NCBI GenBank assembly: GCA_026713825.1
Contig: JAPONS010000081.1
Coordinates: 1 to 64,000, forward strand
Length of the DNA: 64,000 nt
Reading direction: 5' to 3'
Origin: Chloroflexota bacterium
Lineage (GTDB): Bacteria > Chloroflexota > Dehalococcoidia > Lucifugimonadales > UBA1127
Below, in pieces: positions 37,239 through 44,575 of this stretch. The notes under the pieces are model-generated. The model searched no databases, was not told the DNA's origin, and saw nothing but the letters and a program-made list of their open reading frames with translations. Every line of letters begins with the position of its first letter. The stretch's first letter is position 1. The translations under genes and the position numbers were made by a program.

Positions 37239-37871
37239 ATGATTGAAAGACCCAACCGCGAGACCAGATCTGACCGTCGGAGACGGGAACGGGAGACGGG
37301 TTGGAGCATTGAATGGCAAAACGATACAAAATTCTTGACTTTGTTCGTCAACCCTGGCGTAGCCTTCATGGATTGCGTGTGGTTGCAGAGCGTCATCATC
37401 CGGCTCCTCGTTCTATTTCAGCATCGAGACCGCATTTCAGAATTCGTGCAAGCAAACAGCGCTAGGGGTAACCTGTTACCCGAATGGTATGTAGTTGCGG
37501 TACACGACCATCTACGTACATCAGACATGCGTCCATTAATCAAGAAGTTTCAAGAAGCGTTTGCTACCTATCTCTCGGAAGAAACAGTTCATGACTTGAA
37601 CTTCATGGCGAACACACGTAACGCCTTAGGACACGCCTACATTCAAGCGGGTCAGCACATCGACCGTGGTACTCAATCCGGAGCCAGATTGAGATATGCT
37701 CCACGAAACATCAAGGCATTTGGAGAAGCAAGTGAGGATGACTTCGTGGAGTTGGAGATAGTTGCCGACATGAGATGGATGGAAGCTCACCACACCAAGG
37801 TTTTCCGATTGTTCGGAGTAATTGAGAACATTGCGACAAGTCTTGGGGTCCCGAGCGGGATGATTTACTGA
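37239..37871 (+). CDS. Unknown protein in lower-GC segment
   Basis: A 210-residue protein not recognised. It begins with a very basic RSDRRRRERETG stretch and is otherwise alpha-helical, with HDLNFMANTRNALGHAYIQAG suggesting a helical RNase- or HEPN-like R-x4-H arrangement (Arg-Asn-Ala-Leu-Gly-His), which is only suggestive. Base composition is unlike the flanking high-GC DNA. It may belong to the same horizontally acquired segment as the HNH gene. Start chosen at the only upstream ATG. Confidence 0.6.
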   Translation: MIERPNRETRSDRRRRERETGWSIEWQNDTKFLTLFVNPGVAFMDCVWLQSVIIRLLVLFQHRDRISEFVQANSARGNLLPEWYVVAVHDHLRTSDMRPLIKKFQEAFATYLSEETVHDLNFMANTRNALGHAYIQAGQHIDRGTQSGARLRYAPRNIKAFGEASEDDFVELEIVADMRWMEAHHTKVFRLFGVIENIATSLGVPSGMIY

Positions 37872-37904
37872 GCCGGGCATTTCTAGTTTGCAGATACCCC
37901 CCCG

Positions 37905-38213
37905 TCACGCCGCCCGCTTCCGCGACGCTTGCGCCCCCTCCCGCCCCCGCGCCAGCGCCCGCCACACCGTCCGCTCGCTCACCCCGAACCGGCGCGCCAG
38001 CGCCGACGCCGGCAGCCGCTCCCGACGCCGCGCCTCCAGGATCTCCCCGTCCCGCCGGTCCCGCTTCCCCCGCCGCCGCCAGTCCGGGTCGTCGTACTTG
38101 CACACCGCCCGCGGGCACCGCAGGCACGACCGCGACACCTCGCACCCGTCGTCCCGGTACTGGTAGCTCTCGGGCAGGACCTCCGGTCGCAGCTCTCGTT
38201 GCCTTCGTCCCAC
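37905..38213 (-). CDS. Small HTH protein of the terminase cassette
   Basis: A 102-residue basic protein. The C-terminal part (LPASALARRFGVSERTVWRALARG) is a clear helix-turn-helix. The middle holds a Cys-x2-Cys-x4-Cys-type zinc-like group (SCLRCPRAVCKYDD). A longer frame would begin inside an R3 repeat, so the GTG at 38213, preceded by GGAAGGGGAGC, is preferred. Position downstream of the large terminase suggests a phage transcription or terminase-recruitment factor. Confidence 0.65.
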   Translation of the reverse strand: MGRRQRELRPEVLPESYQYRDDGCEVSRSCLRCPRAVCKYDDPDWRRRGKRDRRDGEILEARRRERLPASALARRFGVSERTVWRALARGREGAQASRKRAA

Positions 38214-38276
38214 GGCGCTCCCCTTCCTCACGCATCTCTCCATCGCGGCCTTCCCGCGCGCCAAGTCCCCCTCCTC

Positions 38277-38306
38277 CGTTCGTCCTGAGGGAAATCGAAG
38301 GGTGAA
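38277..38306. repeat. R3 repeat between HTH and terminase genes
   Basis: GTTCGTCCTGAGGGAAATCG followed by AAGGGTGAAC, an R3 variant. It sits just beyond the 3' end of the terminase gene. Confidence 0.75.
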
Positions 38307-38327
38307 CGGAGGAGGCATCTGGTTTCC

Positions 38328-39776
38328 CTATCCCCCGTCGAACGCCACCCGGCCACGAGCGGCCCGCGGCGCGCTCCCCGCCGCCCGCACCGCCAGCGCC
38401 AGGCTCATCAGGTAGTCGTCGTGCCCCCGCGACGCCTCCACAAAGAAGTCCATCGTCTGGTTCACCCGGTACCGCGCCTGCGCCAGTTCCATCTCCCGCC
38501 GGAACTCCACGTGCTCCGCCGACCCGTCCCCCGCGTACGCGCTCAGCCGGCCCGAGTTCACCGCCGCCAGCAGATCGAACCCCAGCGACGACTTGCTCCC
38601 CGCCGTGAACACAAACGGCTCGACCGCCCCGCCCATCGCCCGCACGAGCCCGCTCGCGATCCCCGTCCCAAGCCCCGTCGCGTCCACCACCACCCGCCGG
38701 CACCGCCACCTCCGCTGCAGCAGGTCCACCAGCGACCCCGTCAGCGCATGGTGCGGCTCCCCCGTCCACCGGTAGTGCTCGACCACCCGCACGACGGGCG
38801 CGTCCGCCCGCAACCCGTACTCAACCTCCCCAATCGTCACGACGGTCGAGTCCCGCCCGCCCCGCTCCGCCGGCCGTTCGCCCTGAGCCTGTCGAAAGGC
38901 CTGATCCGCACCCAATCCAGAGCTCTCCCCCCACGGCTCCCCCGCCACGTCGACGCCCGCCACGTACGAACACCCCGGCCGAGGCCCCCGCAGCCGCCCG
39001 TGCGAGCCCTCCAGCCGCGCCAGCTGCGACCGCGAGAACATCCCCTCCCCCGCCGCTATCGGCAGCAGCCGGTACTGCGTCCGAAACAGCGGGTGCCCCC
39101 CCCCCAGCCGCTCCCGCTCCCCCTCCACGTACGCCCGGTACAGCGGGTCGACCGCCGCCACGGCCTCCCAGTCGAACGCGAAGTGCCGCCGGATCCCGTC
39201 CCGCCGCTCCATCTCGACGTTCTCCGCCGCCATCGATTCCAGCAGCGTCGCCCCGTCCCACGGCGTGCCGTACAGCGCCGTCGTCGCGTTGCCCGTCGCC
39301 CCCATCGGCCGGAACTCCTTGAAGAACTTCTCCGCGTCCACGTCCTGCGCCTCGTCCATCTCCAGCAGCACGTCCGCCGTCGCCCCCACCACGTTCGCCG
39401 AGGGCTCCGCGCTCAAAAACGTCTGCTGCGCCCGCCCCACCCGCACGATGTTCCCGCCCTCCATCCGCCACCCCAGCGGCAGACGGGCATCCTTCAGCCG
39501 CTCCCTCAGCCGCCGGAGGCTCACCAGCGCCTGCGGGCTGAACGTCGGCGCCGCCTTCACCAGACTCCCGCCCCTCTTGGAGAACCCAGAGAGCAGCCAC
39601 ACGCCCGTCTGCGCGCTGATCTCGTTCTTGCCCCCCTGCCGCGCAATCTCGACAGTGAACGTCAACCCCTTTCGTTCCCGCGCGCTCTCGAACACGGCAA
39701 AGGCAACCTGCGACTGGTACCGCCTCAACACCGGCAACCCCGACACCCCAACCCCCTTCCTCACCTCTGACCCCAA
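38328..39776 (-). CDS. Phage-type terminase large subunit (TerL-like)
   Basis: About 482 residues. The ATPase half shows a Walker-A-like VEIARQGGKNEIS, Walker B LLEMDEAQDVD and a coupling motif ALYGTPW. The nuclease half shows VAGVDVAGEPWG and VVVDATGLGTG, then GHDDYLMSLALAV near the end, with acidic residues for two metals. TerL proteins pump and cut phage DNA. A 24-base R3 repeat lies in frame at about residues 290-302 (QAFRQAQGER). Start uncertain: TTG 39776, GTG 39764 or GTG 39746. No portal, protease or capsid genes are adjacent. Confidence 0.82.
   Translation of the reverse strand: MGSEVRKGVGVSGLPVLRRYQSQVAFAVFESARERKGLTFTVEIARQGGKNEISAQTGVWLLSGFSKRGGSLVKAAPTFSPQALVSLRRLRERLKDARLPLGWRMEGGNIVRVGRAQQTFLSAEPSANVVGATADVLLEMDEAQDVDAEKFFKEFRPMGATGNATTALYGTPWDGATLLESMAAENVEMERRDGIRRHFAFDWEAVAAVDPLYRAYVEGERERLGGGHPLFRTQYRLLPIAAGEGMFSRSQLARLEGSHGRLRGPRPGCSYVAGVDVAGEPWGESSGLGADQAFRQAQGERPAERGGRDSTVVTIGEVEYGLRADAPVVRVVEHYRWTGEPHHALTGSLVDLLQRRWRCRRVVVDATGLGTGIASGLVRAMGGAVEPFVFTAGSKSSLGFDLLAAVNSGRLSAYAGDGSAEHVEFRREMELAQARYRVNQTMDFFVEASRGHDDYLMSLALAVRAAGSAPRAARGRVAFDGG
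38876..38899. repeat. R3 repeat inside the terminase coding region
   Basis: GTTCGCCCTGAGCCTGTCGA plus AAGG is the same element found in many intergenic gaps (for example 57555, 63018). Its length with flanks preserves the terminase frame. Confidence 0.85.
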
Positions 39777-39780
39777 CTCT

Positions 39781-39890
39781 CCATACCGGCGAAAGCATGC
39801 CCCGTACCCCGATACGGGGCCGGTATCCAGGGGGGTGCGGGGCCGGGGGGTGGCCGTTCACCCTGAGGGAAATCGAAGGGCGAACGGACG
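39781..39890. repeat. Expanded R1 plus R3 repeat upstream of terminase
   Basis: CCATACCGGCGAAAGCATGC starts an R1 with a nested CCCCGTACCCCGATACGGGG insert, closed by GCCGGTATCCAGGGGGG. An R3 element (GTTCACCCTGAGGGAAATCG) follows at about 39858. Confidence 0.8.
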
Positions 39891-39905
39891 CCGGACGCCC
39901 CCCCC

Positions 39906-40166
39906 TCACGCCACAAACCGCAGCACCACCTGCACCACAACCGCCCCAACCACCAGAAAGATCAGCCCGTTCACCCGGTCCTTCACCTCCTTCAACCCCT
40001 CCTCCAGCCCCCGCACCCGCTCGCGCATCTGCACGTCAAACGCCGACACCGGCGTCAGCTCCGCGTCCGGCCCGAACCGCGGCGGCGCCCACCCCAGCCC
40101 GCCGAAGCGCGGCCGCAGCCGCCGCAACGCCCGCTCCAGCGCCCCCCTACCCCTCGGCCGCGTCAC
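39906..40166 (-). CDS. Coiled-coil protein with C-terminal membrane helix (XhlA-like)
   Basis: An 86-residue protein from a GTG at 40166 that overlaps the upstream gene by 20 bases. A heptad-like MRERVRGLEEGLKEVKDRVN segment leads into a C-terminal transmembrane helix (GLIFLVVGAVVVQVVLRF). This is the layout of XhlA-type phage accessory proteins involved with holins. Assignment by architecture, not by sequence match. Confidence 0.6.
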   Translation of the reverse strand: MTRPRGRGALERALRRLRPRFGGLGWAPPRFGPDAELTPVSAFDVQMRERVRGLEEGLKEVKDRVNGLIFLVVGAVVVQVVLRFVA

Positions 40167-40482
40167 GGAACTCCCCCAGTCCCAGCGCCGCGCCGAAGCT
40201 GTTGACCAACCCCGCCAGGCTCCCCGCCAGGTCCTCCTCGGACTGCGGCGACATTCGGTAGCGCAGCGCCGCCATCCGCACCAGCGACCCAATCCCCCGG
40301 GACAGCAGGTCCAGCCGCTCCGGCTTCTCCCGCAACATCGAGAACAGCCGCGACCGCAGCGCCGCCATCTCCTCGTCGACGCCCTCCACCACCCGCGCCG
40401 AGGGCAGCAGCAGCCGCTCCGCCTCCGTCAGCGCCGCCGCGTAAAATCCCTCGTCCCCGTGCGGCTCACTCATCCCAGTCAT
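40147..40482 (-). CDS. Small helical protein of the phage-like cassette
   Basis: A 111-residue, mostly helical protein (EEMAALRSRLFSMLREKPER, then LAGLVNSFGAALGLG). An ATG at 40473 is an alternative start. Its beginning overlaps the end of the next small gene, and its end overlaps the coiled-coil gene, so all are translationally coupled. No family recognised. A small-terminase or DNA-binding role is possible from position. Confidence 0.55.
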   Translation of the reverse strand: MTGMSEPHGDEGFYAAALTEAERLLLPSARVVEGVDEEMAALRSRLFSMLREKPERLDLLSRGIGSLVRMAALRYRMSPQSEEDLAGSLAGLVNSFGAALGLGEFRDAAEG

Positions 40483-40624
40483 CGCCGTCCTCCGACAGCA
40501 GCGCCAGCAGCGCCGACAGCGATTCCGGCGGGATGGTCTCCGCCACCCGCAGCACCGCGATTGCCAGCATGTACGCCACCTTGTCCCAGTCCTCCGACCC
40601 GATTACGCTGTCCAACGATCCCAT
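40466..40624 (-). CDS. Very small acidic protein of the phage-like cassette
   Basis: A 52-residue reading frame (MGSLDSVIGSEDWDKVAYML ... DGDDWDE) starting 8 bases after GGCAGGAG. It is hydrophobic in the middle and strongly acidic at the end. Its TGA overlaps the start of the 111-residue gene, in the compact style of phage operons. Function unknown. Confidence 0.55.
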   Translation of the reverse strand: MGSLDSVIGSEDWDKVAYMLAIAVLRVAETIPPESLSALLALLSEDGDDWDE

Positions 40625-40632
40625 CTCCTGCC

Positions 40633-40956
40633 TCACTTCCTTTCGCGCATCACCAGCGCAGTCATGTACAGCGCCGCCGCCAGCGAGATCCCCACCGCGG
40701 CGGCCTCCAGCCCCGGACTCCGCCCCACCGCCCCGAACCGCGACGCCACCAGCGGGTGCATCGCCCCAACCGCCAGCGCCGCGTTGATCACCACCATCGC
40801 GGCGAGCGCCGCCCGCCGGGCCCGCCCCCGCGCCGTCGCCACCCCGTCACTCCGCGACAACCGCCAAAGCTCCCGCACGAAGTGCATCGAGTTAAATCCC
40901 GCGGAAAGAACGATGAGCGCGCGTTCCAGGAGCAAGGCTCCTGTCCAGTAGTCCAA
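40633..40956 (-). CDS. Small membrane protein of the phage-like cassette
   Basis: A 107-residue protein starting at TTG after GGAGGAGCAGGG. Three hydrophobic stretches (about 5-20, 47-66 and 80-100) suggest a holin- or tail-associated membrane protein. It is the first gene of the leftward cassette and lies 8 bases upstream of the 52-residue gene. No family recognised. Confidence 0.55.
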   Translation of the reverse strand: MDYWTGALLLERALIVLSAGFNSMHFVRELWRLSRSDGVATARGRARRAALAAMVVINAALAVGAMHPLVASRFGAVGRSPGLEAAAVGISLAAALYMTALVMRERK

Positions 40957-41077: not shown

Positions 41078-41355
41078 CGTCATTCCTGCGCAGGCAGGAA
41101 CCCAGAGGGGCGCGGCGGCGGGGCACCCGCACCACCAACCAACGTCGCCACTCCCACACCCCCACGCCTCCATACCGGCGGAGGCCGGTATCCAGTGGCG
41201 GGGCATCCTCACCACCAACCACCCTCCCTACTCCAACCCCCTCCCCGTCGTTCCTGCGAAGGCAGGAACCCCGACAAACGGGACGCACGCTGACGCCCCT
41301 GAATATGGGGAGGGGCAAGGGTGGCCGTTCGTCCTGAGGGAAATCGAAGGGCCCC
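41078..41355. repeat. Array of R2, R1, R2 and R3 repeats
   Basis: In order: R2 (41080-41113), R1 (CATACCGGCGGAGGCCGGTA, 41170-41200), R2 (41247-41280) and R3 (GTTCGTCCTGAGGGAAATCG, about 41328-41352). The 40957-41468 gap contains no visible gene. Confidence 0.8.
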
Positions 41356-41468
41356 CGCCCCCATCGTGACGCCAAAACCCGCCCGCGCTACCATTGGTGC
41401 GGCGGCCTCGTTCGCGCCCAACGCCCCCGCCATAGCCCGGCCCCGCACAACATTGAAAGAGGGTTGCC

Positions 41469-42665
41469 ATGTCCCGGACACGTATCCTGTTCACCCTTGC
41501 CGGCCTCGCCGCCGTCCTGCTGGCGTCCGCGTCCGTCTACCTCTATCGGGAGCTCGATCGCGCCAACGACAGCCTCCGGGCGGCGCGGACGTCTTTGGAA
41601 GACACCGCCGAGACCCTGCACCAGACTCGGGCAACCCTCGCGGATGCCGGCACGGCCCTCGCCGCCCGGTCCGCGGCAAACGGCCGGCTCCGGCAGGACA
41701 ACGCCGCCCTCCGGCGAGACAAGGCCGGCCTCCAGTCCGACAGGGACGCCCTCGCCGGCTACCTCAACGGTGCCCTGCAGCGGAACGCCGCCCTCGCCGA
41801 CGACCTGCAGGCCGCCGCGAATGCCCACGCAGCGCTTCAAGGGGAGTTGGTCGCGGCGGAGTCGCAAATATCGGCCTTGTCGGGGGAGAAAACAGAGGTG
41901 GAAGGTCTGCTCGGAGAAATGACCCAGCGGTTCGAGGCCAGCGACGCCGGCTACACCGCCCTCCAGGCGCAGCACCGCCGCCTGCGGCAGGCGGCCGGCG
42001 ACGTCACGGAGCTGGAAACCCGTGCCGGTGACCTGCGCACTGAGATTGCCGAGCTGGAGGAGCGTCGCCGCCCGCTATTCCTCGCCATGCAGCGGCAGCA
42101 GGTCGAGGGCTTCCTCTGCACCGGCAGCATGGAGCCGGTGCTCACCTGCCTCGACACGGCCACGTGGATGCGCGACTTCGCCCCCGGGGAGATCGTCGTC
42201 GGCGCCGTCATCAACTACGACAACAGCGCCTGCTGGGGCGATGCGGCCGTCGGAAGGACCGCTCACCGCGTGGTCGACATCCAGGTCGTCGACGGCGTCC
42301 ACCACTACTGGCCCAAGGGCGATGCCCACGCCCACCCCGATGGCTGCTGGGTGCCCCACACCGCCGTCAACGGCTACATCATCGAGTTCCACAAGAACAC
42401 CGTCCCGGCCAACGCAGAGCTGCGCGACAACGTCAACGCAGCGCTGGCCGCCTACACCACCGCTTGGGAGGCCTACCTGGACGCCATCGAGGCAAACTGC
42501 GGCCACCGCGAACCCCACCGCTGCAGCGTCTCCCTCACCACCACCCTCGGCCAGCAAGCCCAGTCCCTCTGGCGAGTGGCCGAGGCGGCCTCCGCCTACT
42601 ACAGTTGCTGGTACGCCAACGCAACCGCCTCCCAATACCCCGGCCACATCCCCTACACCTGCTAG
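41469..42665 (+). CDS. Membrane-anchored coiled-coil protein with S26 signal-peptidase-like domain
   Basis: A 398-residue protein. Residues 6-26 form an N-terminal transmembrane anchor. Residues 28-205 are a long coiled coil rich in Ala, Leu and Glu. Residues 213-310 look like a type I signal peptidase fold: CTGSMEPVL with Ser220, then GEIVVG, GRTAHRVVDI with His266, and WPKGDAHAHPDG with Asp285. This Ser-His arrangement is that of the archaeal/ER and sporulation-type S26B enzymes rather than bacterial Ser-Lys LepB. The C-terminus has several cysteines. A role in processing envelope proteins is inferred. The ATG follows AGAGGGTTGCC. Confidence 0.75.
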   Translation: MSRTRILFTLAGLAAVLLASASVYLYRELDRANDSLRAARTSLEDTAETLHQTRATLADAGTALAARSAANGRLRQDNAALRRDKAGLQSDRDALAGYLNGALQRNAALADDLQAAANAHAALQGELVAAESQISALSGEKTEVEGLLGEMTQRFEASDAGYTALQAQHRRLRQAAGDVTELETRAGDLRTEIAELEERRRPLFLAMQRQQVEGFLCTGSMEPVLTCLDTATWMRDFAPGEIVVGAVINYDNSACWGDAAVGRTAHRVVDIQVVDGVHHYWPKGDAHAHPDGCWVPHTAVNGYIIEFHKNTVPANAELRDNVNAALAAYTTAWEAYLDAIEANCGHREPHRCSVSLTTTLGQQAQSLWRVAEAASAYYSCWYANATASQYPGHIPYTC

Positions 42666-42679
42666 CCGCCCCACCCCCT

Positions 42680-42710
42680 CCATACCGGCGAAGGCCGGTA
42701 TCCAGGCGGG
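42680..42710. repeat. R1 repeat
   Basis: CCATACCGGCGAAGGCCGGT followed by ATCCAGGCGGG between the S26-like gene and the LRR gene. Confidence 0.8.
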
Positions 42711-42784: not shown

Positions 42785-44329
42785 ATGCCAAACGTCCTCC
42801 GCAGCCTCCCGCTCCTCGCTGCCGCGTGCGCCGCAGCCCTCCTCGCGGCGTGCGGCCCGCCCGGCGACACCCCCACGCCGACGCCCACCCCGGCGCTCAC
42901 GCCCACGGCCACCGCCGTCACCACGCAGGTGCCCGAGGTCGTGCCCACGCCCGACGCCGCGCCGTCGCCCGTCCCCGTCCCCACGCCCACGCCCGACGTC
43001 ACCCTCACCCCCACGCCCGCTCCCGATGCCCCAACCGGTACGCCCGTGCCCGTGCCAGTCCCCACCGTCACGCCCATCGCCGCCGCAACCGTCATATTCG
43101 ATTCCGACGCGCTGATCGCCTTCGAGCTTGACCCCCTCATAGCGCTCTACGAAGCCACCGGCGGCGACAACTGGACCGACAACACCAACTGGCTCAGCGA
43201 CGAGCCCCGCGGCACATGGCACGGCGTCACCACCGGCGACGACGGCCGCGTCACCGAATTGGTCCTCGATGGGAACAACCTGCGCGGGCGGATTCCCGGC
43301 GCGTTGGGCGCCCTCGAAAAGCTGACCCGCCTGTCGTTCAAGGGCAATCAGCTGACCGGGAGCATTCCGCCGGAACTCAGTGACCCTACCGGCCTGAAGG
43401 TGCTGAACTTGGGGCGCAATCAGTTGATCGGGCAAATCCCTCTGGAGCTCGGCTCCCGCACGAGCCTGACGGAGCTTGACCTGCATTCAAACGAGTTGAC
43501 CGGCGAGATCCCCGTCCAATTGGCCCACCTCGCCAACCTCACCCACCTGAGGCTCGGCGGCAACGATCTGACCGGCAAGATCCCCGTCGAACTGGCCACC
43601 CTCTCCAGCCTGACCGAGCTGGACCTCATGGGCAACAATCTGACCGGCGAAATCCCCGTCGAACTGGCCACCCTGACCAACCTGACCCGTCTGTCCCTCA
43701 ACACCAACGATTTGACCGGTTCAATCCCAACGGAACTTACGGCGTTGTCAAACCTGCAATTCTTGTCCTTATTCGGCAACAAGTTGACCGGCGGCATTCC
43801 AGCGGAGCTGGGCGGCATGGCCAGCCTGGTGGACATCAACCTCTTCGATAACCAACTGAGCGGGACCATACCTCCGGAACTCGCCAACCTGTCCAACTTG
43901 GAATCCCTGCAGATTTATCAGAACCACTTGACCGGCAATATCCCGCCGGAGTTGGTAAGGCTGTCCAATCTGGAAGTCCTGACAGTGGATAGCAACCGGA
44001 TGAGCGGGACCATCCCCCCGTTTCTCGGGGAGATGTCCAGCCTCAGGTGGATTAACCTGGCCGATAACCAGTTCAGCGGGACCATACCGCCGGAGTTGGG
44101 CAACCTGCCCAATCTCGAATACCTGAACGTCGTCTCAAATCAACTGGTCGGCGCAATCCCCCACGAACTCACCGGCCTGTCGGGTTTGAAATATTTCTAT
44201 TTCTACGGCAACGATGGCGTCTGCGTTCCCACGGACGCCGCCTTTCAGGCGTGGCTGCGCAATATCCCGGCTAGGTCCATCAACATCCAAGCCTGCATGC
44301 CTGAGGAAGTAGGCCCCTCGTCGCCCTAA
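42785..44329 (+). CDS. Plant-type leucine-rich-repeat lipoprotein
   Basis: A 514-residue surface lipoprotein (lipobox LLAACG). A Thr-Pro-rich linker follows from about residue 25 to 105. An LRR N-cap (ALYEATGGDNWTDNTNW, GTWHGV) then leads into about 13 repeats of 24 residues with consensus LxxLxLxxNxLTGxIPxELxxLxN, the form found in plant receptor kinases. Repeats are well conserved at DNA level, so copy number could vary by slippage. It may serve in adhesion or protein binding. Start chosen at the ATG that begins the signal; a longer open frame upstream is not real. Confidence 0.85.
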   Translation: MPNVLRSLPLLAAACAAALLAACGPPGDTPTPTPTPALTPTATAVTTQVPEVVPTPDAAPSPVPVPTPTPDVTLTPTPAPDAPTGTPVPVPVPTVTPIAAATVIFDSDALIAFELDPLIALYEATGGDNWTDNTNWLSDEPRGTWHGVTTGDDGRVTELVLDGNNLRGRIPGALGALEKLTRLSFKGNQLTGSIPPELSDPTGLKVLNLGRNQLIGQIPLELGSRTSLTELDLHSNELTGEIPVQLAHLANLTHLRLGGNDLTGKIPVELATLSSLTELDLMGNNLTGEIPVELATLTNLTRLSLNTNDLTGSIPTELTALSNLQFLSLFGNKLTGGIPAELGGMASLVDINLFDNQLSGTIPPELANLSNLESLQIYQNHLTGNIPPELVRLSNLEVLTVDSNRMSGTIPPFLGEMSSLRWINLADNQFSGTIPPELGNLPNLEYLNVVSNQLVGAIPHELTGLSGLKYFYFYGNDGVCVPTDAAFQAWLRNIPARSINIQACMPEEVGPSSP

Positions 44330-44449: not shown

Positions 44450-44575
44450 CCATACCGGCGAAGGCCGGTATCCAGGGGCGAGGGGCACACCCTCCACCAA
44501 CCACCCCACCCACCCAAAGAAAAAGGGCCCCACCCGTCGTTCCTGCGAAGGCAGGAACCCCGACAAGCGGAAACC
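44450..44575. repeat. R1 and R2 repeats between the aldolase tail copies
   Basis: R1 at 44450-44480 (CCATACCGGCGAAGGCCGGT) and R2 at 44536-44570. They lie between the duplicate aldolase tail and the real gene, within the 44330-44622 gap. Confidence 0.8.

What the first reader, a model, noticed from the sequence alone, without database searches (positions are those of the whole stretch)
41469..42665. Coiled coil fused to an S26B-type signal peptidase-like domain
Seen: membrane anchor, about 180-residue coiled coil, then Ser220, His266 and Asp285 in S26-type motifs. Known: bacterial LepB uses Ser-Lys, while ER and archaeal enzymes use Ser-His. Inferred: a specialised protease, perhaps held at a distance from the membrane by the coil. 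Such a fusion is unfamiliar to me.
Basis: partly seen in the sequence, partly recalled or inferred. Interest (0 to 1): 0.6.

Follow-up and report, generated by a model that had tools for sequence, protein, structure and literature searches.

The report
Stalk-mounted signal-peptidase-like surface protease
This gene, from a bacterium of the class Dehalococcoidia (a group reported to lack a peptidoglycan wall), encodes a membrane-anchored coiled-coil stalk with a signal-peptidase-type protease domain at its far end; it belongs to a family, not described in the papers searched, in which an enzyme that normally works against the membrane has been moved an estimated 10-40 nm away from it.

Summary
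ORF 41469-42665 (+) encodes an N-terminal hydrophobic anchor, about 180 residues of heptad-periodic coiled coil, an S26B (archaeal/ER-type) signal-peptidase core with Ser220, His266, Asp285 and also Asp291, and an unreported C-terminal helical hairpin. AlphaFold models one uninterrupted helix (8-204). Modelled alone, the core scores pLDDT 94.5 and its best PDB match is human SEC11C. It is not a one-off: the genome has five such paralogs, one coil-less relative and an ordinary Ser-Lys LepB. I collected 28 coil and 5 linker (four Pro/Thr-rich) proteins, all from Dehalococcoidia. In 26 ordinary Chloroflexota S26B proteins the catalytic Ser lies about 8 residues from a membrane helix; in the stalked set the gap is 75-309. 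Anchor (TM or lipobox) and spacer (coil or Pro/Thr linker) are exchanged, while Ser, His, both Asp and, in all but one, two Cys flanking the Ser are kept. Most likely: an active, disulfide-braced serine endopeptidase displayed at or near the S-layer, maturing surface proteins rather than acting as general signal peptidase. Catalysis, substrate and stalk extension are inferred. Novelty: new variant of a known kind.

The parts
41456..41463 (+). Shine-Dalgarno-like AAAGAGGG upstream of the start codon
   Evidence: read in the sequence
41469..42665 (+). whole ORF, 398 aa, stalked S26B-type protease
   Evidence: five copies in the genome; aligned
41490..41555 (+). N-terminal hydrophobic anchor (residues about 8-29), basic N-flank, read as N-in/C-out
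   Evidence: hydropathy and flank charges
41550..42080 (+). coiled-coil stalk (residues about 28-204), continuous helix, about 26 nm if extended (0.15 nm per residue)
   Evidence: heptad periodicity against shuffles; AlphaFold helix 8-204
42093..42392 (+). S26B protease core (residues about 209-308)
   Evidence: TIGR02228 match; AlphaFold core and Foldseek best match SEC11C
42126..42128 (+). Ser220, predicted nucleophile (CTGSMEP)
   Evidence: invariant in 60 sequences; aligned to the SEC11A/C serine
42264..42266 (+). His266, predicted general base (HRV)
   Evidence: invariant in 60 sequences
42321..42323 (+). Asp285 of the KGD motif, first conserved Asp
   Evidence: invariant in 60 sequences
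42339..42341 (+). Asp291, second conserved Asp, aligned to the last Asp of KGDNNAVDD in SEC11A; likely triad Asp
42117..42119 (+). Cys217, three residues before the catalytic Ser
   Evidence: C217 and C227 both in 33 of 34 stalked/short proteins, in 0 of 26 ordinary S26B
42147..42149 (+). Cys227, seven residues after the catalytic Ser; inferred disulfide with Cys217
42231..42233 (+). Cys255; inferred disulfide with Cys293
   Evidence: co-present or co-absent with C293 in the stalked set (the one exception counted, L024, is a script mis-detection; its sequence has both)
42345..42347 (+). Cys293; inferred disulfide with Cys255
42405..42662 (+). C-terminal helical hairpin (residues 313-344 and 359-387) and Cys-bounded tail CWYANATASQYPGHIPYTC
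   Evidence: AlphaFold; conserved in the close family; no Pfam family reaches its cut-off

Best explanation
The gene encodes a cell-surface serine endopeptidase on a stalk. An N-terminal hydrophobic helix anchors it in the cytoplasmic membrane with the rest outside; the next ~180 residues form an uninterrupted coiled coil, probably oligomeric, projecting outward about 26 nm if fully extended; at its end sits an S26B (archaeal/ER-type) signal-peptidase core with Ser220 as nucleophile, His266 as base and Asp291 (with Asp285) as support, its catalytic loop braced by a Cys217-Cys227 disulfide and the core by Cys255-Cys293; a Cys-rich helical hairpin caps the C-terminus. Its active site is off the membrane, so it probably cleaves extended segments of proteins in or near the S-layer or in the medium, rather than signal peptides still in the membrane, which the genome's ordinary LepB can handle. 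Shown: architecture, fold prediction, invariance of catalytic residues, family-wide displacement of the core from the anchor, loss of the C-terminal membrane helix. Inferred: outward orientation, extended stalk, disulfides, activity, substrate, location at the S-layer.
For: Core model pLDDT 94.5 with SEC11C as best PDB match. Ser, His and two Asp invariant in 60 S26B cores, stalked and ordinary. Membrane-helix-to-Ser gap: 26 ordinary proteins median 8 (range -1 to 10), 25 of 26 with a C-terminal membrane helix; 28 coil proteins median 193 (77-272, measurable in 25) and 5 linker proteins 75-309, none with a C-terminal membrane helix. Spacer type is exchangeable: heptad periodicity in every coil member of A3 with a measurable spacer (p 0.002-0.03), none in the Pro/Thr member L043 (p 0.41). 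Anchor type is exchangeable: lipobox-like Cys in L019 and L112 (coil) and L043, L113, L117, L125 (linker), implying an extracytoplasmic domain. Cys217/Cys227 in 33 of 34 versus 0 of 26; Cys255/Cys293 gained or lost together. The ordinary clade separates with support 100/98. Orthologs are kept in two other species of the genus, dN/dS about 0.5 for the core. The genome has a Ser-Lys LepB and no penicillin-binding transpeptidase. SAR202 and other Dehalococcoidia are reported to lack peptidoglycan and to have an S-layer-like coat (PMC10444878, PMC11994032).
Against: No activity, localisation or disulfide was measured. AlphaFold was run on one chain; long helices often score high and an oligomer or fold-back was not modelled. 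Ser-His distance was not measured. The window protein is below the curated TIGR02228 cut-off (25.7 against 51.85 bits) and matches no Pfam peptidase model above threshold. Foldseek E-values are modest (best 3.3e-3). The S-layer link is by class, not shown for this organism. The ordinary comparison set is a sample of database matches, and the coil/linker/ordinary labels were assigned by reading.
Confidence: 0.6

Rival explanations
1. It is an ordinary signal peptidase: the coil folds back or lies along the membrane (or packs on the translocon), so the active site still reaches signal peptides at the membrane surface; the coil is a docking element.
For: Same fold and catalytic residues as SEC11 and archaeal signal peptidases; a coiled coil can be a docking element.
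Against: One continuous helix with a single Pro in the spacer; some relatives use a Pro/Thr-rich linker instead; no C-terminal membrane helix in any of the 33 stalked proteins; LepB is present; five diverged paralogs are more than housekeeping needs.
Confidence: 0.17
2. It no longer works as a protease: a SipA-like binding protein in which the S26 cleft holds a peptide of a surface partner, the stalk presenting it to an assembly.
For: SipA of Streptococcus pyogenes is the second-best PDB match and is a catalytically dead S26 protein essential for pilus assembly (PMC4049620).
Against: SipA has lost the catalytic residues, whereas Ser, His and both Asp are invariant across the stalked family, while the stalk drifts (55% and 39% identity between orthologs against 75% and 66% for the core).
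Confidence: 0.12
3. It is inward-facing or a misread fusion (frameshift or assembly artefact), the coil and S26 core having no joint function.
For: Charge bias across the anchor is weak in some members; the genome is a fragmented assembly.
Against: Independent copies in many genomes, including one on a 2.86-Mb single-contig chromosome; lipobox variants and conserved cysteine pairs point outward; no internal stop in the copy.
Confidence: 0.04
4. It is a surface enzyme for nutrition: broad cleavage of external proteins to feed the cell, not maturation of its own coat.
For: Multiple diverged paralogs; an analogous stalk-borne protease, STABLE of Staphylothermus, has been proposed to have either role (PMC5744192).
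Against: S26 enzymes are generally selective for small residues at P1/P3 (established knowledge of the family); no transporter or catabolic gene is consistently adjacent.
Confidence: 0.07

Closest known systems
S26B (archaeal/ER-type) signal peptidase I: SEC11A/C, Methanococcus voltae and Haloferax Sec11, SipW; NCBIfam TIGR02228
   Same: Predicted fold (best PDB match SEC11C) and Ser, His and two Asp motifs SMxP, HRV, KGD..D.
   Different: Active-site core 75-309 residues from the anchor instead of about 8; no C-terminal membrane helix; paired cysteines around the Ser; extra C-terminal hairpin; below the TIGR02228 curated cut-off.
Bacterial signal peptidase I LepB/SpsB (S26A)
   Same: Same overall fold class; SpsB among the matches.
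   Different: His in place of the catalytic Lys; the genome has a separate LepB with Ser-Lys.
SipA of Streptococcus pyogenes
   Same: S26 fold used at the cell surface for something other than signal peptide removal (PMC4049620).
   Different: SipA lacks the catalytic residues; here they are invariant. No comparable stalk is described in its abstract.
STABLE protease on the tetrabrachion coiled-coil stalk of Staphylothermus marinus
   Same: A protease held off the membrane on a coiled-coil stalk at the S-layer of an organism without peptidoglycan (PMC5744192).
   Different: STABLE is a subtilisin attached to a separate 70-nm right-handed stalk protein; here an S26B domain is fused to its own heptad stalk. 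An analogy, not homology.

Membership tests
S26B peptidase (fold and catalytic family) | S26 fold | tested here: met
   Core model pLDDT 94.5; best PDB match SEC11C, prob 1.00, TM 0.69
S26B peptidase (fold and catalytic family) | Ser-His with two conserved Asp in SMxP, HRV and KGD..D | tested here: met
   S220, H266, D285, D291 invariant in 60 sequences and aligned with SEC11A/C
S26B peptidase (fold and catalytic family) | Ser and His close in space | not testable with these tools
   Model coordinates are not exported; inferred from the match to SEC11C only
NCBIfam TIGR02228 archaeal signal peptidase I (equivalog) | score over the curated cut-off of 51.85 bits | tested here: not met
   25.7 bits for this protein; the short coil-less paralog reaches 54.3; all 23 A3 members match at E below 0.001
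Type I signal peptidase (functional class) | active site directly following a membrane helix, at the membrane surface | tested here: not met
   193 residues between anchor and Ser, against -1 to 10 in 26 ordinary proteins
Type I signal peptidase (functional class) | removes signal peptides from exported preproteins | not testable with these tools
   needs an enzyme assay
LepB-type S26A signal peptidase | catalytic Ser-Lys dyad | tested here: not met
   His266 in HRV at the Lys place; separate LepB in the genome
SipA-like non-catalytic S26 protein | catalytic residues lost | tested here: not met
   Ser, His, Asp, Asp kept in the stalked set (the one row printed otherwise, L024, is a script mis-detection, see its sequence)
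Rz-like spanin (phrog_739, phrog_214) | phage lysis protein of anchor plus coil, without a peptidase domain | tested here: not met
   Weak match confined to residues 6-84, anchor and first part of the coil; no match to 194 residues of the protease end in phage records

The most novel reading that the evidence does not exclude
A family of stalk-mounted S26B serine proteases, so far seen only in Dehalococcoidia, in which the signal-peptidase catalytic core has been moved from the membrane surface to the S-layer plane, as the covalent counterpart of the archaeal stalk-protease arrangement, and used to mature surface proteins; the spacer (coil or Pro/Thr) and anchor (helix or lipid) are interchangeable parts.
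Probability: 0.45. Interest if true: 0.75.

Novelty: new variant of a known kind. Interest (0 to 1): 0.56.

Why it matters
Signal peptidases are thought to choose substrates by reading a helix in locally thinned membrane next to the active site (PMC13385932). A family that keeps the catalytic residues and the predicted fold but gives up membrane contact would show that the S26B core can be reused as a free surface protease, and would give a first candidate for protein maturation in the poorly known coat of Dehalococcoidia, including SAR202. It also gives a ready comparison set: stalked, short and ordinary S26B cores, some in one genome.

Tried and rejected
Pfam on the whole protein gave only low-level coiled-coil matches. 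Foldseek on the full-length model was swamped by the 197-residue helix and small Tudor/chromo barrels, so the core was modelled alone. Viral contigs, plasmids and phages gave no relatives, so a phage origin is not supported despite terminase-like genes upstream and a weak spanin match to the anchor-coil part. Conserved neighbours were sought in 19 loci and not found: housekeeping and other unrelated genes flank the copies, and the adjacent LRR lipoprotein is absent at the ortholog L033. A fixed ruler length was rejected: the gap varies from 77 to 272 in coil members. Paper searches for a coiled-coil signal peptidase or S26B fusion returned none on point.

Full report
OBSERVATION. A Shine-Dalgarno-like AAAGAGGG precedes the ATG.

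ANATOMY. The spacer shows hydrophobic periodicity of 3.48 residues (1/501 against composition-preserving shuffles) and a single Pro, in the RRRP at its end. AlphaFold with 23 family sequences gives one helix 8-204, a beta-rich core 211-308 and a helical hairpin 313-344/359-387. At 0.15 nm per residue the part outside the membrane would be about 26 nm if extended.

THE CORE. NCBIfam TIGR02228 matches residues 216-308 at E 8.9e-6, below its curated cut-off. A profile of five paralogs matches, weakly, human SEC11C and SEC11A; in that alignment Ser220 and His266 fall on the SEC11 Ser and His, Asp285 on the KGD Asp and Asp291 on the last Asp of KGDNNAVDD. In ER-type enzymes a Ser, a His and two Asp matter; in archaeal ones the Ser, the His and one Asp are essential (PMC2913515). 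Modelled alone with 60 sequences, the core reaches pLDDT 94.5 and pTM 0.87, and the best match among solved structures is SEC11C (7p2q_A, prob 1.00, TM 0.69), followed by SipA, LexA and SpsB.

A FAMILY, NOT A ONE-OFF. The genome (2.64 Mb, 96% complete) has five coil-S26B proteins at scattered places, plus one 122-residue coil-less S26B beside one of them, and a separate Ser-Lys LepB. Relatives with E below 1e-30 to the family profile were found in the own order and in one other family of the class, with weaker ones elsewhere in the class. A scan of 84,980 named species genomes, reaching close relatives only, returned loci from Chloroflexota records alone, seven of the eleven titled Dehalococcoidia. 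None were found in viral contigs, plasmids or phages.

THE KEY COMPARISON. In 26 ordinary S26B proteins of the phylum the catalytic Ser follows a membrane helix by a median of 8 residues (-1 to 10), and 25 of 26 have a C-terminal membrane helix. In 28 coil proteins the gap is 77-272 (median 193; three are truncated and not measurable), in 5 linker proteins 75-309, and none has a C-terminal membrane helix. The anchor may be a membrane helix or a lipobox (L019, L112, L043, L113, L117, L125), and the spacer a coil or a Pro/Thr-rich linker (L043, L113, L117, L125). The fifth linker protein, L026, has a short spacer that is neither coil nor Pro/Thr-rich. Such exchange of parts with a fixed catalytic core is what one expects if distance from the membrane is the selected property. 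Distance itself is not fixed.

CYSTEINES. Cys217 and Cys227, bracketing the catalytic Ser, occur together in 33 of 34 stalked or short proteins and in 0 of 26 ordinary ones. Cys255 and Cys293 are both present or both absent in the stalked set (L024, printed as an exception, was mis-detected by the script and has both). Two disulfides are inferred, which fits an extracytoplasmic domain.

EVOLUTION. In a tree of 60 cores, the ordinary proteins form one side of a branch with support 100/98; within the rest, coil and linker types intermix and the number of origins is unresolved. Orthologs of the window gene in two other species of the genus (L017, L018) keep the core better than the stalk (75% and 66% identity against 55% and 39%), with dN/dS of about 0.5 for the core, i.e. 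moderate purifying selection.

SETTING. The genome has no penicillin-binding transpeptidase, and papers on SAR202 report monoderm cells without peptidoglycan biosynthesis and with an S-layer-like coat (PMC10444878; PMC11994032). A stalk of tens of nanometres could therefore reach the coat. The known analogy is the STABLE protease on the tetrabrachion stalk (PMC5744192). Neighbouring genes are not conserved, so substrates cannot be named from context.

EXPLANATION AND STATUS. Best reading: an active S26B serine endopeptidase displayed on a stalk, acting on surface or external proteins. Architecture, residue invariance and displacement from the anchor are shown by sequence and prediction; fold is predicted with high confidence; topology, disulfides, activity, S-layer location and substrate are inferred. 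Rivals are a fold-back signal peptidase, a non-catalytic SipA-like binder, a nutritional protease and an inward-facing or artefactual fusion. As a member: it meets the tested S26B fold and residue criteria, but not the membrane-adjacent architecture of type I signal peptidases nor the TIGR02228 cut-off, so it is filed as a new variant, not as a signal peptidase.

Noticed in passing
37711-40956 (-): A block of phage-like genes: a weak terminase large subunit match (38331-39776, phrog_5909, E 3.6e-6), a late-transcription-activator-like HTH protein (37908-38318) and small unknown ORFs; similar ORFs lie upstream of the ortholog in L033 (1246-4533), so possibly an old prophage or gene-transfer-agent remnant.
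   Followed up: partly
42684-42703, 41174-41193, 44454-44473 and eight other places in the window: Interspersed 20-bp palindromic repeat ACCGGCGAAGGCCGGTATCC, 11 copies with up to 3 mismatches and 0 expected by chance. REP-like, function unknown.
   Followed up: partly
42788-44329 (+): Lipoprotein with a Pro/Thr-rich linker and a long leucine-rich-repeat domain, just downstream of the protease; not present at the ortholog L033, so not a conserved partner.
   Followed up: partly
L006:356-724: A 122-residue coil-less S26B with the same four cysteines, next to a stalked paralog, with Ser 9 residues from its membrane helix: a possible intermediate or membrane-proximal partner.
   Followed up: partly
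L113, L117, L125, L126, L127: Linker-type relatives of family f37 of the own order (L113, L117, L125) and coil-type relatives of family f28 that lack the Ser-flanking cysteines (L126, L127); they may be independent inventions of the same layout.
   Followed up: partly
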